NCBI GenBank assembly: GCA_001769835.1
Contig: MEPR01000036.1
Span: 1 to 57,090 of the forward strand
Direction of reading: 5' to 3'
Origin: Bdellovibrionales bacterium GWB1_55_8
GTDB taxonomy: Bacteria > Bdellovibrionota > UBA1018
Length of the DNA: 57,090 bases
Shown here: piece by piece, positions 44,613 through 56,895 of the stretch
Position numbering within the stretch: the first letter of the stretch is position 1
Layout of the letters: each line of letters begins with the position of its first letter
Position numbers and translations under genes: made by a program
Notes under the pieces: model-generated
What the model was told of the DNA's origin: nothing
Database searches by the model: none
The model's input: only the letters and a program-made list of their open reading frames with translations

Positions 44613-47600
44613 TTGGTTACGGTCCTTGCAGATGAATGCATCGTGAGCAAAAATCGCAAACAGGCGGCAAAGCCTGAAAGCTTTCCATTAGTGGGGATTG
44701 GTGCATCGGCCGGCGGCCTTGAAGCATTCTCACAGCTGCTCGCTGAACTTCCCACAGATACCGGGATGGCATTCATCCTCATCCAACACCTTGACCCAAC
44801 CCACGAAAGCTTGTCGTCGGAGATCCTGTCCAAGGTCACTAAAATGCGTCTTCAGGAAGCCAAAGACCGGATGACCATTGAGCCGAACCACGTTTATGTG
44901 ATTCCTCCCAATTACGACATGGCCGTTATGCGGGGAGAGCTGATTCTTCTGCCACGCCGCGAAATGCGCGCACCGCACATGAGTATCGATTTCTTCTTTC
45001 GGTCGCTCGCGCAGGAAAAAAAAGGCCAGGCCATCGGCGTGATCCTCTCCGGGGCGGCGTCGGACGGAACCGATGGTCTGCGCGCGATCAAATCGGCGGG
45101 CGGCACCACTTTCGCACAAGATCCTAAAACAGCACGTTACGATAGTATGCCTTCGCATGCCATCGCAGCTGGCGTCATAGACATTGTCCTTCCACCTCAG
45201 GCAATAGCGCGTGAGCTCGCCGTACTGGCTGGTCACGAGTATCTCGCGACAGCCCAGGGCGAAGGTGCCCACGAAGCTGCGGAGCGCCATGATACTTCCC
45301 CCCCTCAGGCTCAAGTTGTTCAAAGGAACGACCCGCTCCGCGACATATTCCTTCTACTGAGGAGCCATACCGGAGTCGACTTTTCCGATTATAAACGAAC
45401 GACCATCCTGAGGAGAATTCAACGACGGATGATGGTACAGAAGAGCGAAACGCTCGAGGCCTACGCCGCTTTTCTTGGTGAGCACCCGGACGAAATCAAA
45501 ACTCTCTATTCGGATATTCTTATCAGTGTCACGGAATTTTTCAGGGACCCTGATTCCTTCCAGGCCTTACAGGAAGAAGTCTTTCCAGTCCTCGTCAAAA
45601 AGAAGAATGCTGGTGCAGTGATCCGGGTCTGGGTGCCTGGCTGCGCGTCGGGAGAAGAAGCCTATTCCATTCTCATTTCGCTGCTAGAGTTTCTGGGCGA
45701 TACGGTAGGACATGCCCCTGTGCAGGTATTCGCCTCGGACATCAGCGAATCTGCACTCCAGAAGGCACGAGCCGGTGTTTACCCGGAGACGATTGCCCAG
45801 AACCTCTCGCACGAACGGTTGAACCGGTTTTTCACCCGAGTTGATGGCGGATATAAGATCAATAAGGCCATTCGCGATATGTGCCTGTTTTCAAGGCATG
45901 ACGTAACAAGTGATCCGCCCTTTGCCCGGATCGACCTCATTTCCTGCCGCAATTTGCTGATTTATTTCGCGCCCGTGCTCCAAAAGCGGCTCATTCCCAT
46001 TTTCCATTACGCCCTCAGTCCGGGAGGTTTTCTCTGGCTCGGCAACTCCGAGACGCCAAGCGGAGCATCTCAATTATTTGAGACGATCGATAAGACAAAC
46101 AAGATCTATTCAAAAACAAACATCCCCACTCCGATCGCTTTGCGATTTACCGCCAGCACCTTCATTGCCGACACGGTACAGCAGCAGACACCTAAACTCG
46201 CCGCCATGTCGGATGCAGGAGATCTGCACAAAGCAGCCGATCGCATCCTTCTTTCCAGGTTTGCTCCGCCCGGTGTTCTGGTCGATTCCAGGCTCGAGAT
46301 TCTGCAGTTCCGCGGCAGAACGGTGCCGTATCTGGAACCCGCCCAAGGAAGCCCATCCAACAGTCTCATGAAAATGGCGCGAGCAGAGCTGCAGCCGGCG
46401 CTTCGTATCGCGATGGATTCAGCCCTGAAGGGAACATCACCCATCAAGAAGGCGGGCTTATCCTTTGAGGACCAAGGAAAACGAAAAACAGTTCAGATTG
46501 AGGTCATTCCGGTCAATCCGCTTGCGCCGGATCGTGAGCGCAAGTTCCTCATCCTGTTCGAGGAAGCGACCTCCGTACCGGCTCCCTCCCGGCCCGTCTC
46601 CGATTCTGCTGTCGATCGAACCGATGACTATCGAAACGAGACCATCGCCCGCCTTGAACAGGAGATTTCATCTCAGCGCGAATATCAAACCGCGCTGAAC
46701 GACCAATTTGAGACCACCCAAGAAGAGCTCACCGCGACTAATGAAGAACTTCGAAGCGCGAACGAGGAACTTCAAAGCACCAACGAGGAGCTCCAGACAG
46801 CCAAAGAGGAAACTCAATCAACCAATGAAGAGCTAAACACGGTGAACGATGAGCTTCGGAGCCGTAACGCTGATCTGACAACGATAAGCAACGATTTGAA
46901 CAACTTTCTGGCAAGCGCGGAAATCCCCATGGTGATGGTCGATGCGAGTCACCGCATCCGGAGGTTCACACCCAAGGCGCAGGAACTGTTCAGAGTGATT
47001 TCCTCGGACCTCGGTCGCCCCATCGGGGATATCAGACCAAACTTTGATCTGAATCTCGAAGCCCTGGTATCCTGGGTATCCGCCTCCGTTGAATCCAAGG
47101 AAGTCGAGGTTCAGGATCGCAACGGGCACTGGATTCGCGTACATGTTCGACCCTACAAAACAATGGACAATCGGATCGACGGCGCCGTCATCACGGTTGT
47201 GGACATAGCCGCCCTCAAGGAGCAGGTGCAAGAGACCATGGCCTCGTTCGAGTATGTCCGCTCCATTTTGGACACAGTGAGGCTCCCTTTGGCGGTACTG
47301 GATGCCAGCCTTCGACTGAAGTCCGTCAATCGCGCGTTCGTGGAACACTTCCATCATACAACTGCGGCCATCGGTAGTGATTTCTTCGGCAGCCTCGGCA
47401 TACAGAGTGAACGCGTGTCGCAGCTACGCGTGCTTCTTCACAAAGCAGCGGGACAGGACTCCGAACTGAATGACTTTGAAATCGAATGCCAAACCCCGGG
47501 AATGGGCTTGCGCTGGATACTTCTTTCCGGAAGGAAGATTCAGCCTTTAGGCGATGACACGAAATCGCCCATTCTGCTACTCGCTCTGAATGAAATTACC

Positions 47601-48845
47601 GAGCGGAAACTGCTCGAAAAGGAACGAGCCAGCCTGTTGATCCGAGAGCAAGAAGCGCGCGCCGAAGCTGAACGTGGCAATCACGCGAAAGATATTTTTC
47701 TTGCGACTCTTTCACACGAACTTCGCACACCACTCACATCGATCCTTTCCTGGGTTCAGCTCTTGCGCATGGGAAAGCTCGATCCTGCAAAATCAAAACG
47801 CGGCGTCGAAATCATCGAGCAGAGTGCGAAGGCGCAAGGGCGGCTGATCGACGATTTACTGGACGTTTCCCGAGCACTGATGGGCAAGCTTGCCCTGGAG
47901 ATGAAGGAAATTGATCCCAGGACTATCGTCGAGGCCGCGATCGAATCGGTCAGGCCATTGGCGGATCTGAAATCAGTCCGCATTGAGCCGAGGTTTGAAT
48001 CAATTTCAGCTACTATTTCCGCTGATCCCGGCCGTCTCCAGCAGATCATCTGGAATCTCCTTACGAATGCCATCAAATTTTCGTCAAATGGCGGCAGTAT
48101 AGAGATCGTTCTCGAACGTTACACGGAGGTCACCAGGCAGTTTATGCGCATCAGGGTAACCGACCATGGCAAGGGAATTCATCCCGAGTTTCTTCCTGTC
48201 ATCTTTGATCGCTTCAGCCAGGCCGACAGCGCGAGTACGCGTGTGCATGGTGGCTTGGGATTGGGCCTGGCAATCGTGCGGAGCATGACCGAGATGCAGA
48301 ACGGCTCGGTTCAGGCCGAAAGCCGAGGCGAAGGGCAAGGTTCGACCTTCACCGTTAATTTTCCTCTGAACACCGATGCGGACCAGGCCAAAACGCCAGG
48401 GACAAAAGAACACCCAATGACAGTCCTGGCGTCGAAAACGCCTACCGCAGAGCTTACCAGGCTGGACGGGGTGCGCGTACTTCTGGTCGAAGACGACGAA
48501 CAGTCACGGGAAGCGATAGCAGTAGTATTGAAGTCTTTTGGTGCAGAAGTCCTGTCCGTCGAATCGGCAAGAGATGCCCTTACTAAACTTGAAGAGTTCA
48601 AACCGAGCCTGCTGGTGAGCGACATCGCCATGCCCGTGGAAGACGGCTATAGCTTGATTCGCAGGATTAGAGCCCTTGGCCCTGAACAGTTTGGCAGTAT
48701 TCCAGCCATGGCTTTAACCGCATACGCCGGCGAAGAAGATGAAAAACGCGTACGCGCTGCCGGCTTTCAGACCCACCTTTCCAAACCGGTGGAAGTGGAT
48801 GTTCTGATCAGAGCTATAGCCCGACTTATCCCTCGCCCGACTTAG
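44613..48845 (+). CDS. CheB-CheR-PAS-histidine kinase-receiver fusion
   Basis: 1410 residues. In order: CheB methylesterase (LVGIGASAGGLEAF, LIQHLDPTHES, LSGAASDGTDG; about 25-205) and CheR methyltransferase (DYKRTTILRRIQRRM, WVPGCASGEEAYS, LISCRNLLIYF; about 240-500). A PAS-like region comes next. A long coiled coil with repeating TNEELRSANEELQSTNEELQ (about 685-755) leads to two more PAS-like stretches. The protein ends with HisKA (LSHELRTPLTSIL), HATPase (NLLTNAIKFS, GLGLGLAIVRS) and a receiver (LLVEDDEQ, phospho-acceptor Asp in LLVSDIAMP, LTAY, SKP). The active residues look intact. Such proteins run chemosensory-like signalling without a receptor domain. Start is unsure: TTG 44613 or GTG 44643. 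Confidence 0.93.
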   Translation: MVTVLADECIVSKNRKQAAKPESFPLVGIGASAGGLEAFSQLLAELPTDTGMAFILIQHLDPTHESLSSEILSKVTKMRLQEAKDRMTIEPNHVYVIPPNYDMAVMRGELILLPRREMRAPHMSIDFFFRSLAQEKKGQAIGVILSGAASDGTDGLRAIKSAGGTTFAQDPKTARYDSMPSHAIAAGVIDIVLPPQAIARELAVLAGHEYLATAQGEGAHEAAERHDTSPPQAQVVQRNDPLRDIFLLLRSHTGVDFSDYKRTTILRRIQRRMMVQKSETLEAYAAFLGEHPDEIKTLYSDILISVTEFFRDPDSFQALQEEVFPVLVKKKNAGAVIRVWVPGCASGEEAYSILISLLEFLGDTVGHAPVQVFASDISESALQKARAGVYPETIAQNLSHERLNRFFTRVDGGYKINKAIRDMCLFSRHDVTSDPPFARIDLISCRNLLIYFAPVLQKRLIPIFHYALSPGGFLWLGNSETPSGASQLFETIDKTNKIYSKTNIPTPIALRFTASTFIADTVQQQTPKLAAMSDAGDLHKAADRILLSRFAPPGVLVDSRLEILQFRGRTVPYLEPAQGSPSNSLMKMARAELQPALRIAMDSALKGTSPIKKAGLSFEDQGKRKTVQIEVIPVNPLAPDRERKFLILFEEATSVPAPSRPVSDSAVDRTDDYRNETIARLEQEISSQREYQTALNDQFETTQEELTATNEELRSANEELQSTNEELQTAKEETQSTNEELNTVNDELRSRNADLTTISNDLNNFLASAEIPMVMVDASHRIRRFTPKAQELFRVISSDLGRPIGDIRPNFDLNLEALVSWVSASVESKEVEVQDRNGHWIRVHVRPYKTMDNRIDGAVITVVDIAALKEQVQETMASFEYVRSILDTVRLPLAVLDASLRLKSVNRAFVEHFHHTTAAIGSDFFGSLGIQSERVSQLRVLLHKAAGQDSELNDFEIECQTPGMGLRWILLSGRKIQPLGDDTKSPILLLALNEITERKLLEKERASLLIREQEARAEAERGNHAKDIFLATLSHELRTPLTSILSWVQLLRMGKLDPAKSKRGVEIIEQSAKAQGRLIDDLLDVSRALMGKLALEMKEIDPRTIVEAAIESVRPLADLKSVRIEPRFESISATISADPGRLQQIIWNLLTNAIKFSSNGGSIEIVLERYTEVTRQFMRIRVTDHGKGIHPEFLPVIFDRFSQADSASTRVHGGLGLGLAIVRSMTEMQNGSVQAESRGEGQGSTFTVNFPLNTDADQAKTPGTKEHPMTVLASKTPTAELTRLDGVRVLLVEDDEQSREAIAVVLKSFGAEVLSVESARDALTKLEEFKPSLLVSDIAMPVEDGYSLIRRIRALGPEQFGSIPAMALTAYAGEEDEKRVRAAGFQTHLSKPVEVDVLIRAIARLIPRPT

Positions 48846-48846
48846 C

Positions 48847-50142
48847 TTAATCCCCAAGCTGCAGCACGCCCGCAGCAGCGTAGCCTTCCTTATAGCCCGT
48901 CTTGTAGCCAATCTCGACGATGTCATTCGCAGCCTCTGTGGCAGCCTCTGCGGCAGCCTCTTCAGCCCACTTGCGCTCATCGTATTCCGCCTGCGCAAGG
49001 CCATCGGTAAACCCGTCATTGTAGCCTTCGTCATAGCCCTTGATGTAACCCGTTTCGTATCCGCGATCGTAGAAGTCGCTGTAAGCATCATAGTAGGCCT
49101 TGTCATAAGCAGTTTCGTAACTCTTGTCATAACCCGACCCGTATCCCGAGTCATAACCACTGGCGTAAGGGTTTGTCAGGGTGCAGTTACTCGGGATGAA
49201 GCTCGACGTACAGCTTGTCTGCGGAAGCTTCTCCTGGCCAGTTGTCATGTTCTTCATGCAGCGAGTGACACAGACTTCGGTTCCGGCATGAGAGCTGAAG
49301 TCATAGCTGCAGGAGACCGATTTAGCCCGCTCCGTTGTTCCGCATACCGCCCATACAAATCCTTCTTCGCGAAGCGAAGACCGCTCCTCAAAGGCCGCCT
49401 GGAGCTGCTCTTCCTTGTTCGCATACTCACTTCGAAGATCTTCCTCCCTCTGTTTATGATCTTTCTCGAGCTTTTCGGTTTTCCTCTGCCAATGCTTCTT
49501 GGCCGAGGAGACAGCAGCCCACCCGACAAAACCGGCGACCGCCACTGATAGAACGATGACGAGAACCACCCTCCAGGTGTCGCGTGCCTTGGTGTTCATC
49601 AGGCTCCGCGTGAGATTGAGCTCCTGAATCAGGCCTTCGCGATCCAGCAGCCCAAGCCTTTTCATCGTCACGGATTTCACCTGCGACAGATCTCCCCGGA
49701 CGAGTTCGAGCAGAATGTGCCTTTTTTCCGCGGCACTGTAAGCGAGATCGTATTGAAGCCGCAAATCCGGGTGATACTTGCCCGTTTTGAACGCCTCGCC
49801 AAACACGGTATCCATGGACTCGACCGGCATCCGCTCCAGCAGAAACTCGAGCTCGATCAGCTGAATCTCTTCCTCCGCTAGGAGTTGTCGCAGAATTTTC
49901 TCGCGCACTTGCTCGATCTGGACATCCGGGTTTTTCAGTTCCGCGATCAGCTCCTGAACGGATGCCAGGGCAATCGCCTTGTTCTCCAGTGCCTGCGCCG
50001 CAGTGAGATCCTCTTCCGCGTAGTAGAAAGCAGGATTCTGGCTCACTTCCCGCTGCATCACCTTCAGGACGCTATTTGCCTCCGCGGCAACGGGAAGAAA
50101 AACCATTTGGAATGTTAGCATCGCAACAAAAAGTCTTTTCAT
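48847..50142 (-). CDS. GX3-repeat membrane protein B (six-Cys module)
   Basis: 431 residues. A signal peptide or anchor (MKRLFVAMLTFQMVFLPVAA) is followed by a helical domain to about 185, a membrane span at about 191-211, and a coiled coil at about 215-258. A six-cysteine module spans 261-320 (Cys 267, 278, 291, 295, 311, 320). Then come 14 tetrapeptides [Tyr/Phe]-x-x-[Gly/Ser/Ala] at 326-381 and a helical end with three more GX3 units. It is a paralog of the gene upstream: both share LMNTK or AMNTK before the span and the cysteine spacing. Last gene of the C11 operon, 27 bp after the paralog, with GGAAAGGAA upstream. It converges on the CheB/CheR gene with a 1-bp gap. Function unknown. Confidence 0.82.
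   Translation of the reverse strand: MKRLFVAMLTFQMVFLPVAAEANSVLKVMQREVSQNPAFYYAEEDLTAAQALENKAIALASVQELIAELKNPDVQIEQVREKILRQLLAEEEIQLIELEFLLERMPVESMDTVFGEAFKTGKYHPDLRLQYDLAYSAAEKRHILLELVRGDLSQVKSVTMKRLGLLDREGLIQELNLTRSLMNTKARDTWRVVLVIVLSVAVAGFVGWAAVSSAKKHWQRKTEKLEKDHKQREEDLRSEYANKEEQLQAAFEERSSLREEGFVWAVCGTTERAKSVSCSYDFSSHAGTEVCVTRCMKNMTTGQEKLPQTSCTSSFIPSNCTLTNPYASGYDSGYGSGYDKSYETAYDKAYYDAYSDFYDRGYETGYIKGYDEGYNDGFTDGLAQAEYDERKWAEEAAAEAATEAANDIVEIGYKTGYKEGYAAAGVLQLGD
49000..49167 (-). repeat. GX3 tetrapeptide repeat tract, protein B
   Basis: Fourteen contiguous four-residue units (YASG, YDSG, YGSG, YDKS, YETA, YDKA ... YDEG, YNDG, FTDG), encoded in 12-bp steps that are not identical at DNA level, so the repeat is held by selection on the protein. 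GX3 series also occur in Yae1/Lto1 (deca-GX3) and as GxxxG runs in FliH. Confidence 0.9.
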
Positions 50143-50169
50143 GACAAATTCCTTTCCTTAATTCCAGCT

Positions 50170-51510
50170 TCAGAGCCGAGTTGTGCCTGACAGCAGCAGT
50201 TTTGCGTCATTTCTGCCGTCACTCAGTCCGGCCTTGTAACCCTGGTCGCGTGCAGCCGGACTGGTATTGGGCGAAGCCTGCTTGAGAGTCATCAGCATCG
50301 GAGCGCCCCAGAAGTAATCCGTATAGCCCTCGTTGAACCCGATGGCGTAACCGTCGTCATAGCCATCCATCCAGCCATCCTCCTGGCCGTCATACCAGCC
50401 GTCCTCTGATCCCTGCTCATCGCCGTCGTATCGGCCATCCGCCGACCCGTCGTTTGATCCATCCGAGTAGCCGTCATCCCAGCCCCGGTCATATTCGCTG
50501 GGATCGTAGCAATCCGCAGGAATATACGGTGAAGTACAGGTGGGCGCTGAGTGCATCGTCTCCTTTCCGGAAGCCGGATGGCGATAGCATTGAACACTGC
50601 AGAATTTGGTTCCCTGAAAGAGCGCGTAATCATACCCGTTGCACAAAATGGAATCCGGCATTTCGTAGTTGCCACAGGTCGTCCAAACGTACCCGCTCTC
50701 TTGAAGGTAGTTCTCCTGCTCCTGCGAAAGCCGCTGATTCAGTTCGTTGTATTTGGCCTCGAGCTGCGCGCGGGTCTTCTCGAACTCACGGTCCAGTTCC
50801 GTTTTTCGGGTTTGGTACCGTCCCGAATAGACACTGTTGGCAACACCCCAGCTCACAAGACCGACAGCGGCGATTCCCAAAACCGCATAGCCCAGAACCT
50901 TGAGCCAACGCTTATCGCCCTTGGTGTTCATAGCCGATTGCATACGCTCGAGATCCAGGATCCACTGCGCCTGGGTCATTCGTGCTGAACGTTTGTTCAT
51001 CATCGAAAACTGATGATCCAGATCAGAGATAAGCACCCGGGAAATCACATCTGCCTTCTCCTTCCGGGTGAACGCGGCCATGTATTCCTGTTGAGCTTCC
51101 GCATAGGACCGGTTGCCCTCCATCACGGAGGCGATCTCGTTCAGGGTTTCGATAGAAAAACCTTGAATCTGCCTGATCAGCTCATCTTTCTGTGTCTGCA
51201 AGGCCTCTTGATTAAGCTTCAATACCCTATCCCGGAACTCGGCGGTGGAAATCTGATCGTCCTTCAATCGGGCGATGCTCTCGGTCACTTCACGCGCAAG
51301 ATTCGCCTTTTTCTCAATATCCACCCGATTGACGAGTGCCTGCGGAATTTTCGCGAATATACGATCATACCGCGTCGAGATCGTGTCGAGCGTCGCGTTT
51401 AGAAGCGTCTCCTGTGAGCGGGCCTGAACCACCGGAACAAGAGCCGTCTGAAAGACCATCGCCACTGCCACAAGGGCGGCCACCGCCCTTAATCGTTTAC
51501 CTAGATACAT
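50170..51510 (-). CDS. GX3-repeat membrane protein A (six-Cys module)
   Basis: 446 residues from the ATG at 51510, with GGGAG seven bases upstream inside the end of the protease gene; only one base separates the two genes, so translation is coupled. Earlier in-frame ATGs are rejected. Signal peptide (about 1-30, ending VQA), helical domain, membrane span at about 203-223, coiled coil to about 268, and a six-cysteine module (Cys 279, 290, 304, 308, 325, 334). Fifteen tetrapeptides of x-x-[Asp/Glu]-Gly type follow at 340-396 (YDRG, WDDG, YSDG ... YDDG), then a short tail with two more. It is a paralog of the next gene with a more acidic repeat. Function unknown. Confidence 0.82.
   Translation of the reverse strand: MYLGKRLRAVAALVAVAMVFQTALVPVVQARSQETLLNATLDTISTRYDRIFAKIPQALVNRVDIEKKANLAREVTESIARLKDDQISTAEFRDRVLKLNQEALQTQKDELIRQIQGFSIETLNEIASVMEGNRSYAEAQQEYMAAFTRKEKADVISRVLISDLDHQFSMMNKRSARMTQAQWILDLERMQSAMNTKGDKRWLKVLGYAVLGIAAVGLVSWGVANSVYSGRYQTRKTELDREFEKTRAQLEAKYNELNQRLSQEQENYLQESGYVWTTCGNYEMPDSILCNGYDYALFQGTKFCSVQCYRHPASGKETMHSAPTCTSPYIPADCYDPSEYDRGWDDGYSDGSNDGSADGRYDGDEQGSEDGWYDGQEDGWMDGYDDGYAIGFNEGYTDYFWGAPMLMTLKQASPNTSPAARDQGYKAGLSDGRNDAKLLLSGTTRL
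50323..50493 (-). repeat. Acidic GX3 tetrapeptide repeat tract, protein A
   Basis: About 15 four-residue units ending mostly in Asp-Gly or Glu-Gly, with Trp or Tyr at the first position of many. The regular acidic side chains with aromatic spacing could bind cations or pack as a GX3 helix. DNA copies have diverged. Confidence 0.88.
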
Positions 51511-51511
51511 G

Positions 51512-52660
51512 TCATTCTCCCTTTTTTTCATAAGCCATCCGCTTCTTTTCAAAGTCCCAGTTTGGAAGTTCCGCCCATGCAGGCGATCGCTCCAATTCCA
51601 ATCGGACCAGATCTCCCTGATCCGCTTCGGTGTTCCACGGCAACATAAAACTCAGTGATCCCGAGCGCCCGCTTGTCAGCTTTTTCACTGTTGCCAAAAA
51701 ATGCTTATCCTCTGCGGAAAGGTTCCACGCGAACGCACGAAGATCAGCGGCAGCAGAATCGCTCAACACCGCCCCAGCAAGGCGTGGCCGAACACGGTTC
51801 GCAAATTGCCTGCTTTCTCGGCGGCTCATCTCAGAGATGCTCCAGACCCATTTCTCGAAAGCCGAATCAAAATACGTTCGCAGGTCCAAAAGCTGAGAGA
51901 GATCAAAGATCGTGAGCGGCGAGCGAATACCACCCTTGATGCGTTGATAATCAGCCGTGTCCGCCTGAATTTTCATCAGAAACTCCAGAACAGCCAAATC
52001 CTGCTTCAGTTGAACCGATCTGAACTGGATCCCTTCCAGTGGGAGCTCGAATTGCGAGGCCATCAAATAGTGCGTCTTCCCCTCAAACGCAGTCAGCACC
52101 TCCAGATAAGCCATTGCGCACGTATCAAATAGGATCGCGCTGAACTCGCCGTCTTCAATCATGCCGGCAAGATCCAGGTAACTGAACCGGCTCTCCGGGT
52201 GTGAATGGTCATACGATGAGATCGGCCGCCAGCCGTCGCCGTGTCCCCAGAATACGAGAATTTTGTTGGAGTTCGGCTGAACTGATTCAGCCCTGAGCAG
52301 CTGTCGAAACCAGCGTGGGTCCGCACTATCCGTCTCACCAAAGTTCCGATCCTCCGATATCACGCCATCGGTGAGTCTTCGGATGACCGTGCCCCTGGCT
52401 GACGCGGAGATCTCGTCGTTCGGATCATAATAGATATGGACCCGCGTTCTTTCGCCGGCATTCCGCGCTATGTTGTTCCAGAGGGCGAATACGTCATCAG
52501 CCTGGTGAACGATCTTTCCCTCGTCAGTCGCGTAGAGCAGATCATTGTCACCATTGATGTAAACGTACACTTCCAGTCCGGCGCCATCGGTGGACGCGGC
52601 CCCGCTCGCCAGAGAGGGCAATCCGAGAATGAGAAGAAATGGAAGCATGGTGCGGATCAT
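51512..52660 (-). CDS. Clostripain-family (C11) secreted cysteine peptidase
   Basis: 382 residues with a signal peptide (MIRTMLPFLLILGLPSLASG). VYVYINGDNDL opens the C11 fold; KILVFWGHGDGW gives catalytic His140 and AILFDTCAMAYLE gives catalytic Cys181, both intact. Clostripain-type enzymes cleave after basic residues and are often autoactivated. GGAG lies eight bases before the ATG at 52660. The gene is 13 bp downstream of the duplicated helical protein and 1 bp upstream of GX3 protein A, so it sits inside a tight operon. Substrates may be the neighbouring envelope proteins, which have basic sites near their membrane spans; this is inferred from position only. Confidence 0.9.
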   Translation of the reverse strand: MIRTMLPFLLILGLPSLASGAASTDGAGLEVYVYINGDNDLLYATDEGKIVHQADDVFALWNNIARNAGERTRVHIYYDPNDEISASARGTVIRRLTDGVISEDRNFGETDSADPRWFRQLLRAESVQPNSNKILVFWGHGDGWRPISSYDHSHPESRFSYLDLAGMIEDGEFSAILFDTCAMAYLEVLTAFEGKTHYLMASQFELPLEGIQFRSVQLKQDLAVLEFLMKIQADTADYQRIKGGIRSPLTIFDLSQLLDLRTYFDSAFEKWVWSISEMSRRESRQFANRVRPRLAGAVLSDSAAADLRAFAWNLSAEDKHFLATVKKLTSGRSGSLSFMLPWNTEADQGDLVRLELERSPAWAELPNWDFEKKRMAYEKKGE

Positions 52661-52673
52661 GTTTGTGCTCCTC

Positions 52674-54587
52674 TCAGATCTCTTCCCAGAATTCCGAAGG
52701 CAGTTTCTTTTCCTTCGACCCTAGAAAGAAGGCCTTGCCTTTCCGGACCTGTTCCATCGCCGCTTCGAGCCGCTTCCGGTCCTTGCACCAACGCCATTTC
52801 TGGAAGCCCTTGAACTGCAAGCACGAGCCCTCATCCTTGTAGACGCCCCCGAAGACATCCGCCCGGTTCGATCGAACCTGCACGATATTCGTCGCGAGCT
52901 TCAGGTTTGCAGCTCTCACTTCTTCTGCCTTCGGCTCGAACTCCTTGGCAGCGTCAAACTTGCGCTCTAGAATTCGTTTTTTCCATTTGTTGACCGTATT
53001 CACGACCATCTCGCGATGAAGCCGTCGTTCCGTATCCGTAAGATTTCGATTGCGCTCGATGGCTTTCTGCATCGTCTTTTGCTTGTTGAAAAAGAGTTCG
53101 AACTCCACTCCCGAGATGATGCTCTGTGAATGAAACACCTCCAGATAGATCAGCTGGATAAGCTGATAGACGGAATTGACCTCAAGGACATTCATGTAAG
53201 GGATCTGGCTGAAGATCTGAGATGCGAGGGCGAAATTGTCCACCAGAATGTTCTGCACCGATGATTCGCGGTTCTGCAGACGCTCAGCGACGCAGGCCGA
53301 GTCTTTCTTGCAATCCTCAACCAGCTTATCCATGTCCACCTGCTGCTTGGGTTGCTCAATCTTGGTGAAGCCCTCCTTATTGCGGTGATCGACCGCTTGA
53401 ATCAACTGAAGAAGCATGTTGTTGGCATGTGCGCGAAGCACCTTGATGCGGTGCTGGTAATCAGCGACCTGCTCGGTTGTCTCAAGCTTGTTGGCTTTCA
53501 TTTGAAAGAAGGCATCGCGCTCCAGCAGCAGCGTTTTTTCTGAGAGGTAGTATCCAGACAGCGCGGACCCCGTCTGAAACGGGTTGGAAGCGAAGGCGTC
53601 CACCTGCGATCCAGCCTCCTCCATATCCTCCTGGATGCGGTGCATGTGTTCATCGTAGTCCTCGTCGTAAGCGCCCTGAGCGCGGAAACCCAGGAATCCA
53701 TAACGCTTCCGGTACTCGTCGATCTCCCTTTGCAGGTCCTCATTCTCTTTCCCTAGATTCGCGAGCGGCGTCTTCATCGCGTCCGCGATCACCACCCGCC
53801 TGGTATCCGTGAGATTCACCCAGCGCAAGGCCATGTTCAAAAGGAGCTGCGCATGAAACTCCTTCTCTGCATTGGAAATGTATTTATTCTTCTCGATGAG
53901 TTCCAGGCTGTCGACCGTACGCGAGGCCAGCATGTTGTACTGCGCTTCTATCAGCTTCTGCTCGACGATGATCACATCGAGATAGAGAAGCATCAGGTAC
54001 TGATAGGTGTTTTTAACTTCATGCGTTCCGAGGAACTTGCTGACGTCAAGGGACTGCTTCGCATCCACGATCAGATTCAGGAACGAGTAATTGATCAGTG
54101 AATCGTCCAAGGCAGTGGGCACGCACCCGTTCTGAACCGAGCACTCTCCCGAAAGAACGTCCTCCACCCGCTTGATCTCTCCTTCCAAATTCGCGAACGC
54201 CTTATCGTTCTGCACGGCCTCGCGAACGGAAATCATGGCCTTATAAAGGTTTCTTTTAACGTGGAGCAGATAGACGTAGTAGAGATTGATCTCGCCGAGG
54301 TCCTGCGGCTCATACCCCTTGAAGAAATCGACCAGGCTCTTGATTCCTCTCACGCCATAGACACTGATGTACTTGGCCAGAAATCCTGCCGCAAACGCGA
54401 GCGGCACATTTCCCGTCAAAGCAGCCCCGATCGTGACACCACTCGCGATCAGATCAGTCGCTATCTGATCGCCTAGTTGGCCATCCTCACCGGCGTGGGC
54501 GGTTCGGGTCCCGCCCGGCACGAAGACCGTACCGAGGAATGTCATGAGCACTACCCAGGCGACACATTTCCGCAGCCTAATCAGCAT
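52674..54587 (-). CDS. Secreted helical protein with internal duplication, first gene of the C11 operon
   Basis: 637 residues from the ATG at 54587 (GGGGGA upstream; 19 further in-frame residues lack a site). A signal peptide is cleaved near TAHAG, and a hydrophobic segment at about 47-75 may insert in a membrane. Two gapless 82-residue copies can be aligned, 190-271 and 469-550: EVKNTYQYLMLLYLDV with EVNSVYQLIQLIYLEV, and IEKNKYISNAEKEFHAQLLLN with IERNRNLTDTERRLHREMVVN. The invariant positions include Tyr, Glu, His, Asn and Trp. Otherwise helical, with cysteines (SGECSVQNGC, EDCKKDSAC). No known family. Probably periplasmic; its link to the C11 peptidase is positional. Confidence 0.82.
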   Translation of the reverse strand: MLIRLRKCVAWVVLMTFLGTVFVPGGTRTAHAGEDGQLGDQIATDLIASGVTIGAALTGNVPLAFAAGFLAKYISVYGVRGIKSLVDFFKGYEPQDLGEINLYYVYLLHVKRNLYKAMISVREAVQNDKAFANLEGEIKRVEDVLSGECSVQNGCVPTALDDSLINYSFLNLIVDAKQSLDVSKFLGTHEVKNTYQYLMLLYLDVIIVEQKLIEAQYNMLASRTVDSLELIEKNKYISNAEKEFHAQLLLNMALRWVNLTDTRRVVIADAMKTPLANLGKENEDLQREIDEYRKRYGFLGFRAQGAYDEDYDEHMHRIQEDMEEAGSQVDAFASNPFQTGSALSGYYLSEKTLLLERDAFFQMKANKLETTEQVADYQHRIKVLRAHANNMLLQLIQAVDHRNKEGFTKIEQPKQQVDMDKLVEDCKKDSACVAERLQNRESSVQNILVDNFALASQIFSQIPYMNVLEVNSVYQLIQLIYLEVFHSQSIISGVEFELFFNKQKTMQKAIERNRNLTDTERRLHREMVVNTVNKWKKRILERKFDAAKEFEPKAEEVRAANLKLATNIVQVRSNRADVFGGVYKDEGSCLQFKGFQKWRWCKDRKRLEAAMEQVRKGKAFFLGSKEKKLPSEFWEEI

Positions 54588-54828: not shown

Positions 54829-56895
54829 TCATTTCACCGGAGTTACGGAGGCCGGGACAGGAGTTCGCTTTCCACTCAACGGCAGAAAGAATTCATAGGG
54901 CCGATAGCGCAACCTTCTAAACAGGGCGGAAAAGATTTTCCACAGCCAGGTAGGCTCGACATTTCTTGCGCGCATCGCGGTATACAGCGCGAGAAAAAAA
55001 CTTACCCCGAAGTTCAGAATGCCGATCAAGGCAATACCGAAGAGAGCGGATCCCAGTTCCAGCCCGCTGATTGCCTCCAGACCGATTCCACAGACGGCGA
55101 ATGTCAATGCACCAGCCGAGAGCGTGACATGCCTCACATCCAGGGGCAGCCCGAAAAACCTACCCATGACCGGCGTGAACGCGAGAAAGAAACCAAGCGA
55201 CACGTTTCCGGCGAAGCCAGCCACATTCCTGACCAACCAGTTCGCCACCCAGATTTGCCCCTTTTTCGGTGCCGCCGAGAAGGCCTCGGGAATTCTTCGG
55301 TAAACCACCCAGTTTTCAGCCCAACCGGCCGCAATACTGGAAAGCCAAAGCAAGACGCCGGTAAGCGCGGCATAGGGAACGGTCATGCTCGTGAAAGGAT
55401 TGAGCGACTCCAAAAGCTTTTGTCCATAAGCGGCCGCGAGCACATGCTGCCCGAAGGATAGGAAATAGATCCGATCAATCAGGATCGCTCCGGGAATCAC
55501 CATCCCGAGATTACCCAGGGCGGCGACGAATTGGGATCGACTGATCTGCAGAAGCTCGTTCACGAACTGGGAGATCTGAGATCGACGACGTAAATCACTT
55601 AACTTTCCCGCCAGAGCGGAAGCGGTCATGGAAGGCTGCTTGGTAGCGAGAGTGAAGTGAAACAGCTGCATCGTCAGGAAGCTGCCCGAATAATTGAGCC
55701 ACAATAAAATGCCTTCAAAAAAAGGCGCCGGCTTAAGCCCTCCGACCAGGAACTTGCAAAGCGTCGTCCCCACCGTCAATACGCCGCCCCCCATGGCGGA
55801 AAGAAGCATCGTGAGGTATTCCCTCCTGTTCCGGACAATGTATTGCTCGCCGGAAACTCCTACGCGCTCCACAACCTTGCGGGCCATGAGATGCAAATTA
55901 TTCTGGATCAGCTCGCTCAATTTGCGGTGGGCGAAACTGCCGCGCACCAGATCGGCGAGGAGTTTCTGCCAATGGGTGCCCGCTTCCAGAAAGAGGATCG
56001 CCAACAGCTTCTCACAACGCTCAATCGTCTGCTCCAGCAACTCCAAACGGTACACGATTGACACCGAAACGCCATATTGGTTCAGGTGATCCAATGCAGC
56101 TTTGATCTCCGATCGGCAGCCTTCCAGAATTCTTTGAAGCTTCCGCCGCTCTTCTTCGGATACGGGCTGATGTTCATCAGTACTGCAGAGCGCGTAAAGT
56201 TCGCAGCCCATCTGGAAAAACCAGGACTTCGATGCAACCCGGACTTCAGATCGCTCCCGAATCTCCGGCGAAAGCCCGACGGCAGAGATCTGGGCGGCGA
56301 GAATAATAAGCGAGCTATTGATAGACGCACGAAAGTGCTCCTGAACATGCGCTTTACTGCCCGAAACAGGAAACAGAACCTGATGCAACTGGCCGATCGT
56401 TTCATCTTCAAGATTTTCGACCCAGTCCGCATCTTCCTCACTCCTGAAGATCCGTATAAAAAGCTCGGAAAGATCGGAATCGATCCGGGGTGAGGGCAAT
56501 ATTTTCCTTAGTAACCTGTCGCTCGCCTCAACAACGAGTGAGCTATCGCGACCCAATCCGACCTGAGAAAACAGGCCGACGGGATCGGTTTCCAGCAGGA
56601 TTGACTTGAGCGTTTCCGCCACCGCGTTCCTGAGCTCCGGGCTTTGCTGCTCCAGGTGAATGAGCAGAAATTTCACTCTGCCGTCCTGGATGTGCTCGTG
56701 CCGGCTCTTCTTTTCTTTCCTCTGCTCGAGCGCAAAAGGCAGACGAATCCAGCTGATTACCTCTTCCAGCCACCGGATCCGTTCGCTCAGCGGCGCCTTG
56801 GGATCGGCCTGAGTAAGCAGGGTTTGCAAATCCGGACGAAAGAGGGGGATCTTTTCCAATCCGAAATGCCTGGAGAGAGTGCGACGAAAATTCAT
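54829..56895 (-). CDS. COG4389 (Gcr-like) polytopic membrane protein
   Basis: 688 residues. A soluble helical N-terminal half has the DPKAPLSERIRWLEEVISWI opening known from proteins labelled site-specific recombinase Gcr (COG4389). The C-terminal half has about seven to eight membrane spans (LLSAMGGGVLTVGTTLCKFLVGG, GNLGMVIPGAILIDRIYFL, AALTGVLLWLSSIAAGWAENWV and others). The recombinase name is historical; I see no Ser- or Tyr-recombinase active site, and the spans argue for a membrane function. The ATG at 56895 has only a weak ribosome site. It precedes the C11 operon by 241 bp, a gap large enough for a separate promoter. Confidence 0.8.
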   Translation of the reverse strand: MNFRRTLSRHFGLEKIPLFRPDLQTLLTQADPKAPLSERIRWLEEVISWIRLPFALEQRKEKKSRHEHIQDGRVKFLLIHLEQQSPELRNAVAETLKSILLETDPVGLFSQVGLGRDSSLVVEASDRLLRKILPSPRIDSDLSELFIRIFRSEEDADWVENLEDETIGQLHQVLFPVSGSKAHVQEHFRASINSSLIILAAQISAVGLSPEIRERSEVRVASKSWFFQMGCELYALCSTDEHQPVSEEERRKLQRILEGCRSEIKAALDHLNQYGVSVSIVYRLELLEQTIERCEKLLAILFLEAGTHWQKLLADLVRGSFAHRKLSELIQNNLHLMARKVVERVGVSGEQYIVRNRREYLTMLLSAMGGGVLTVGTTLCKFLVGGLKPAPFFEGILLWLNYSGSFLTMQLFHFTLATKQPSMTASALAGKLSDLRRRSQISQFVNELLQISRSQFVAALGNLGMVIPGAILIDRIYFLSFGQHVLAAAYGQKLLESLNPFTSMTVPYAALTGVLLWLSSIAAGWAENWVVYRRIPEAFSAAPKKGQIWVANWLVRNVAGFAGNVSLGFFLAFTPVMGRFFGLPLDVRHVTLSAGALTFAVCGIGLEAISGLELGSALFGIALIGILNFGVSFFLALYTAMRARNVEPTWLWKIFSALFRRLRYRPYEFFLPLSGKRTPVPASVTPVK

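What the first reader, a model, noticed from the sequence alone, without database searches (positions are those of the whole stretch)
48847..54587. Four-gene envelope operon around a C11 peptidase with no recognised system
An internally duplicated secreted helical protein, a clostripain-type peptidase with intact His140/Cys181, and two paralogous GX3-repeat membrane proteins lie on one strand with gaps of 13, 1 and 27 bp. The tight coupling suggests a single complex. I know of no described system with this content. A guess: the protease processes or is regulated by the cysteine/GX3 proteins at the cell surface.
Basis: partly seen in the sequence, partly recalled or inferred. Interest (0 to 1): 0.72.

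Follow-up and report, generated by a model that had tools for sequence, protein, structure and literature searches.

The report
Conserved four-part envelope module, optional peptidase
A few uncultured relatives of predatory Bdellovibrio share a compact gene set encoding two pairs of sister proteins, apparently exported from the cytoplasm and always kept together, usually with a protein-cutting enzyme between them; it looks like an undescribed multi-part envelope complex of still unknown job.

Summary
Four minus-strand ORFs lie at 54587-48847 with gaps of 13, 1 and 27 bp: A (637 aa, two homologous helical halves A1 and A2), B (C11 peptidase, His140/Cys181 intact), and C and D (27% identical, each with a membrane-like segment, a six-cysteine domain and a GX3 tail). 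The cluster recurs in 11 of 369 Bdellovibrionota genomes from two families. A and C/D profiles each hit 10 genomes, 9 of them shared, and both exceptions are contig-end truncations. Flanks differ between genera. A1, A2, C and D are each one clade, so both duplications are ancestral and all four parts are kept.

The emphasis on C11 needs correcting. Two Bacteriovoracaceae-type genomes have intact A-C-D with no C11 in the cluster and none detected elsewhere. Where present, B is a dedicated clade. The core is A1+A2+C+D; the peptidase is a frequent, dispensable companion.

No Pfam, NCBIfam, PHROG, PADLOC or PDB match explains A or C/D. Best reading: an exported hetero-oligomeric membrane-associated complex, with an Arg/Lys-specific C11 that matures or remodels it. 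Surface C11s that activate multi-part toxins in Bacteroidales (PMC9308784, PMC11169675) are a functional precedent only. Function and the C/D topology remain unproven.

The parts
52674..54587 (-). Gene A, 637 aa, exported all-helical protein made of two homologous halves (A1, A2)
   Evidence: ORF; halves homologous; orthologues; separate tandem genes in G006, G028, G032, G023, G125, G140
53688..54587 (-). A1 half (residues 1-300): signal-like N-terminus, Gly/Ala-rich hydrophobic region, one conserved Cys pair (C149, C155)
   Evidence: alignment A1; hydropathy; Cys census
54315..54461 (-). A1 conserved Gly/Ala-rich hydrophobic stretch, residues 43-91, candidate membrane-associating helical hairpin
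   Evidence: hydropathy; conservation; AlphaFold helices 37-57 and 61-91 at low confidence
52674..53687 (-). A2 half (residues 301-637): two conserved Cys pairs (426/432 and 589/601)
   Evidence: alignment A2
51512..52660 (-). Gene B, 382 aa, exported C11 (clostripain-family) peptidase; optional member of the module
   Evidence: Pfam PF03415 58 bits; PDB C11 hits 6mzo, 6n9j; own clade
52241..52243 (-). Catalytic His140 codon
   Evidence: invariant in 7/7 cluster C11 copies
52118..52126 (-). Asp179 (S1 pocket, PmC11 Asp177 equivalent) to catalytic Cys181
   Evidence: Cys 7/7, Asp 6/7, Glu in G023; PmC11 residues from PMC4850288
50170..51510 (-). Gene C, 446 aa, exported protein: helical domain, hydrophobic segment, long helix, six-Cys domain, GX3 tail
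   Evidence: ORF; alignments; model
50842..50898 (-). C hydrophobic segment, residues 205-223; Lys197 (50920-50922) just before it is the only K/R column that tracks C11 presence
50509..50688 (-). C six-cysteine beta domain (residues 275-334; Cys 279, 290, 304, 308, 325, 334)
   Evidence: six Cys invariant in 16/16 C and D proteins; two long strands in the model
50317..50484 (-). C tail: 14 consecutive GX3 units (residues 343-398)
   Evidence: predicted partly helical 367-401
48847..50142 (-). Gene D, 431 aa, paralogue of C with the same architecture
   Evidence: E=4e-42; D clade separate from C clade at 100/100
49513..49569 (-). D hydrophobic segment, residues 192-210
   Evidence: hydropathy 2.58
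49183..49344 (-). D six-cysteine domain (Cys 267-320)
48991..49062 (-). D tail: 6 uninterrupted GX3 units (residues 361-384) within a longer YxxGYxxG region

Best explanation
The locus encodes a dedicated exported hetero-oligomeric complex built from two ancient paralogous pairs, A1/A2 (all-helical, sometimes fused, as here) and C/D (helical domain, membrane-like segment, six-Cys domain, GX3 tail). C and D probably pair through their GX3 helices, as the deca-GX3 proteins Yae1 and Lto1 do, and the Gly/Ala-rich segments of A1, C and D hold the complex in or at an envelope membrane. The C11 peptidase B, where present, is a dedicated Arg/Lys-specific protease that matures or remodels the complex; the juxtamembrane Lys197 of C is the best single candidate site. 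Shown: conservation, strict co-occurrence of A1, A2, C and D, ancestral duplications, intact catalytic residues, optional C11. Inferred: export, the complex itself, GX3 pairing, membrane anchoring, P1 specificity. Guessed: the substrate and the physiological role.
For: A and C/D profiles each hit 10/369 genomes with 9 shared (Fisher p=3e-16, not corrected for phylogeny). The two exceptions lie at contig ends (G159, G154). Genes are adjacent, with overlaps or short gaps, in all nine other loci, and flanking genes differ between genera. Gene order is rearranged in G023 (B-C-D-A1-A2) but the set is kept. A1, A2, C and D are each one clade at 100/100. Cluster C11s form one clade against solo C11s at 98/96. 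Cysteines occur almost only as conserved even sets (A1 one pair, A2 two, C and D three each) plus the catalytic Cys in B, which fits an oxidising compartment. N-termini are signal-like; GX3 stretches also occur in other proteins of the phylum, at least some with signal-like N-termini. His, Cys and the acidic S1 residue are kept, and in PmC11 that pocket gives Arg/Lys P1 preference (PMC4850288). GX3 motifs mediate Yae1-Lto1 pairing (PMC4523923).
Against: No complex was modelled; only single-chain models with low-to-moderate confidence (pLDDT 61 and 64). Two C11-less loci show the core does not need B. A signal peptide plus one inner-membrane segment would place the six-Cys domain in the cytoplasm, which sits badly with six conserved cysteines as disulfides; topology is unresolved. 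The K197 signal rests on two C11-less genomes and one column of 28 conserved K/R columns tested. All relatives found are MAGs; nothing is known of expression.
Confidence: 0.5

Rival explanations
1. The A-C-D complex does not depend on the C11 at all: B is a co-regulated envelope protease acting on other surface proteins, like fragipain shaping the B. fragilis secretome.
For: Intact A-C-D without any C11 in G109 and G140. Most genomes of the window's family checked carry extra solo C11s. No clear cleavage site pattern in A or D.
Against: B sits between A and C in six of seven C11+ loci, with overlapping or near-abutting genes. Cluster B is its own clade. In G125 it is the only C11 in the genome.
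Confidence: 0.25
2. It is a secreted multi-component membrane-inserting antibacterial system activated by its own C11, functionally like BcpT or the two-component CDCL toxins of Bacteroidales.
For: Exported paralogous subunits with Gly/Ala-rich hydrophobic segments next to a C11. C11 proteases activate BcpT after LTR and CDCLs after TR/TK (PMC9308784, PMC11169675). C has T-K at residue 197 in G000, G003 and G023. Patchy distribution.
Against: No sequence or fold similarity to any toxin; weak Foldseek hits to XaxB, PaxB and ClyA have E above 1. No immunity-like gene. C11 absent in two loci. No evidence of release from the cell.
Confidence: 0.13
3. C and D are inner-membrane proteins with a periplasmic helical sensor domain and a cytoplasmic six-Cys (metal-binding) plus GX3 adaptor end, giving a transenvelope signalling or stress relay cut by B.
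For: Signal-like N-terminus plus one hydrophobic segment followed by basic residues (SGRYQTRK, SAKKHWQRK) suggests C-terminus inside. Yae1/Lto1 and FliH GX3 proteins are cytoplasmic adaptors.
Against: Six invariant Cys with no other Cys in most copies look like disulfides. GX3 stretches follow a signal-like N-terminus in other proteins of the phylum. No regulator or kinase is conserved beside the cluster.
Confidence: 0.12

Closest known systems
C11 (clostripain) peptidases: PmC11, clostripain, fragipain, doripains
   Same: Family, His/Cys dyad, acidic S1 Asp, export; some orthologues of B have lipoprotein-like N-termini as fragipain and the doripains do
   Different: B is a separate clade embedded in a fixed gene set; the window copy has no lipobox; activation loop and activity untested
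C11-activated toxins of Bacteroidales (BcpT, CDCL pairs)
   Same: An exported C11 together with exported multi-part proteins; basic P1 cleavage likely
   Different: There the C11 acts in trans; BcpT and CDCL are not related in sequence to A, C or D as far as profiles and folds show
Yae1-Lto1 deca-GX3 pair
   Same: A pair of proteins both carrying long GX3 runs, in which the motif drives heterodimer formation
   Different: Cytosolic Fe-S adaptors without signal peptide, membrane segment or six-Cys domain; Pfam Yae1_N scores below cut-off (18.4 and 17.1 vs 27.5 bits)
FliH GxxxG repeat segment
   Same: Long GxxxG repeat matched by NCBIfam FliH models on the tail only (E=3.8e-8)
   Different: No FliH core; 32.9 vs 192 bits needed; exported rather than cytosolic

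Membership tests
Peptidase C11 (gene B) | Pfam PF03415 above curated cut-off | tested here: met
   58 vs 25.8 bits
Peptidase C11 (gene B) | His/Cys catalytic dyad | tested here: met
   His140 and Cys181 aligned in 7/7 cluster copies
Peptidase C11 (gene B) | S1 Asp two residues before the Cys (PmC11 Asp177) | tested here: met
   Asp in 6/7, Glu in G023; role from PMC4850288
Peptidase C11 (gene B) | Autocleavage of an activation loop at a basic residue | tested here: inconclusive
   H-to-C spacing of 41 in the six copies measured; a basic residue in that loop in most but not all copies
Fragipain/doripain-type surface lipoprotein C11 | Lipobox | tested here: not met
   Window B ends its signal in SLASGAAS without Cys; G003, G028 and G032 have lipobox-like Cys
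Yae1/Lto1 deca-GX3 proteins (genes C, D) | At least ten GX3 units | tested here: inconclusive
   C has 14, D has 6 uninterrupted
Yae1/Lto1 deca-GX3 proteins (genes C, D) | Pfam Yae1_N cut-off | tested here: not met
   18.4 and 17.1 vs 27.5 bits
FliH (genes C, D) | NCBIfam FliH equivalog cut-off | tested here: not met
   32.9 bits at best vs 192; match confined to the GX3 tail
Known alpha-helical pore-forming toxins (gene A) | Fold or profile similarity | tested here: not met
   No Pfam match to A; Foldseek PDB best E=0.86 on a low-confidence model
Anti-phage defence systems | PADLOC model match | tested here: not met
   Only two partial, weak matches, E=0.0035 and 0.0061

The most novel reading that the evidence does not exclude
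A1/A2 plus C/D form a previously undescribed class of envelope machine restricted to Bdellovibrionota: a membrane-inserting complex assembled by disulfide-stabilised helical subunits and GX3-helix pairing, switched by an optional dedicated caspase-fold protease that cuts C beside its membrane segment.
Probability: 0.28. Interest if true: 0.8.

Novelty: new variant of a known kind. Interest (0 to 1): 0.52.

Why it matters
It defines two protein families without detectable relatives in the libraries searched, tied to each other by near-perfect co-occurrence, in a phylum known for predation. It also gives a natural comparison (seven loci with, two without the peptidase) for asking what a gene-linked C11 does in a Gram-negative envelope, and a rare case of long GX3 runs in proteins with export-type N-termini.

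Tried and rejected
C11 as the organising centre: rejected, because A-C-D exists without it. Cleavage of fused A into A1 and A2 as the C11's job: not supported, since split-A genomes keep C11 and fused-A G109 lacks it. Phage or plasmid origin: no match in viral contigs or plasmids, and GC equals the surroundings (0.539 vs 0.544). Common origin of A and C/D: profile comparison gives 1-2.5% probability. Solved-fold relatives of A or C: none significant. PHROGs: one E=0.0012 hit in one of 13 A members, ignored. Sigma-70-like promoter and terminator scan: nothing above chance. Literature search for clostripain with predatory bacteria: no paper.

Full report
Observation. C's frame has upstream start codons that would overlap B; the start at 51510 gives the 1 bp gap, and in relatives the B/C junction overlaps by 4-34 bp. 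Pfam and NCBIfam recognise only B (PF03415, 58 bits vs cut-off 25.8) and, below cut-off, the GX3 tails of C and D as Yae1_N- or FliH-like. Nothing in Pfam, NCBIfam, PHROGs or PADLOC identifies A, and Pfam does not identify the N-terminal and Cys parts of C/D.

Gene A is a true duplication. Its halves match each other (E=3e-11; hhalign 96% over 256 columns), and in G006, G028, G032, G023, G125 and G140 they are separate tandem genes. A1s form one clade and A2s another at 100/100, although the placement of the divergent G023_A2 is flagged as a long branch. C and D likewise split into two clades at 100/100. The ancestor therefore already had A1, A2, C and D, and every intact locus keeps all four (G032's contig ends inside C, so its D cannot be seen).

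Distribution. The A1 profile hits 10 of 369 genomes sampled in the phylum, and a C/D profile without the GX3 tail also hits 10. Nine are shared. G159 (A1 only) and G154 (C/D only) end at contig borders, so neither counts against co-occurrence. Fisher p is 3e-16, not corrected for shared ancestry. Six genomes belong to the window's family and the rest to a second, Bacteriovoracaceae-labelled family. A scan of 84,980 species found only Bdellovibrionales, Bacteriovoracaceae, Oligoflexia and one unplaced 'Proteobacteria' MAG, the last being one of the same loci. That scan uses exact degenerate peptides, and missed G109 and G125 if they are held there, so absence outside the phylum is likely but not proven. 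Plasmid and viral collections gave nothing.

Neighbourhood. Flanks differ between genera: the window has a CheB-CheR-PAS-kinase-receiver hybrid downstream (convergent, 1 bp apart) and a PF10136 membrane protein upstream. Neither is conserved, so both are outside the module. Genes overlap or nearly abut in all loci. G023 has the order B-C-D-A1-A2, a rearrangement that kept the set together.

The peptidase. B's His140 and Cys181 are invariant in seven of seven cluster copies, and the S1 acidic residue is Asp in six and Glu in one. By the PmC11 structure paper (PMC4850288) this pocket predicts Arg/Lys at P1. Cluster C11s are one side of a 98/96 branch against solo C11s of the same phylum. But G109 and G140 have A followed directly by C, 9-10 bp apart, and no C11 anywhere in the recovered genome (87% and 81% complete). 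So C11 is an accessory, gained or lost while the core persisted.

Where the proteins are. In the window, apart from one Cys in A's signal segment, every Cys of A, C and D belongs to a conserved even set, and B has only its catalytic Cys; relatives are similar, with a few extra Cys in some B copies and N-terminal segments. With signal-like N-termini, that fits export to an oxidising compartment. GX3 stretches also occur in other proteins of the phylum, some of them directly after a signal-like N-terminus. The hydrophobic segment of C/D is awkward: a plain signal peptide plus one inner-membrane helix would put the Cys domain in the cytoplasm. I leave the topology open.

Structure. AlphaFold with 12-13 sequences gave C at mean pLDDT 64 (helical N-domain, long helix 217-271, strands 275-310 in the Cys domain, helix 367-401 in the GX3 tail) and A at 61, all-helical with matching long helix pairs 188-233/239-296 and 466-512/518-574 in the two halves. 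Foldseek against the PDB found nothing significant for either. The models are too weak to exclude a known fold.

Mechanism. Deca-GX3 motifs drive Yae1-Lto1 pairing (PMC4523923), which suggests, but does not show, that C and D pair by their tails. The C11's target was probed by asking which conserved K/R columns vanish in C11-less loci: 1 of 28 did, C Lys197, just before the hydrophobic segment, and T-K in three loci. Fragipain and doripain B cut after T-R or T-K in CDCLs, and the doripains cut BcpT after L-T-R (PMC9308784, PMC11169675). With two C11-less genomes, and comparable one-off columns in other residue classes, this is a lead only.

Verdict. A real, conserved, undescribed gene module with an optional dedicated C11 peptidase. 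I rate existence of a physical A-C-D complex at about 0.75 and processing by B at about 0.35, and give 0.5 to the statement as a whole, whose firmer part is the complex. I chose 'new variant of a known kind' because C11-linked maturation of exported multi-part proteins is known in Bacteroidales, while the core proteins themselves match no known family; with no function shown, 'categorically new' would overclaim.

Noticed in passing
44613-48845 (+): 1410-aa CheB-CheR-PAS-histidine kinase-receiver hybrid converging on gene D with a 1 bp gap; not conserved beside the module in relatives
   Followed up: partly
54829-56895 (-): PF10136 SpecificRecomb family protein (688 aa, 625 bits), same strand upstream of A, about 240 bp away; not part of the module in relatives
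   Followed up: partly
L001, L002, L003 (own genome contigs C35, C81, C95): Three further C11 peptidases in the window's genome, outside any A/C/D cluster, forming a clade apart from B; the C81 copy is followed by a rubrerythrin-like ORF (named by eye, not by a search)
   Followed up: partly
L045-L053: Other proteins of the phylum carry GX3 runs of 10-17 units, often with long coiled-coil-like stretches or signal-like N-termini; they look like an unannotated, widespread motif of Bdellovibrionota
   Followed up: partly
L085:9934-10935 (G125): Short 333-aa C11 that is the only C11 detected in its genome and lacks the C-terminal W/NW motif of the other cluster copies
   Followed up: no
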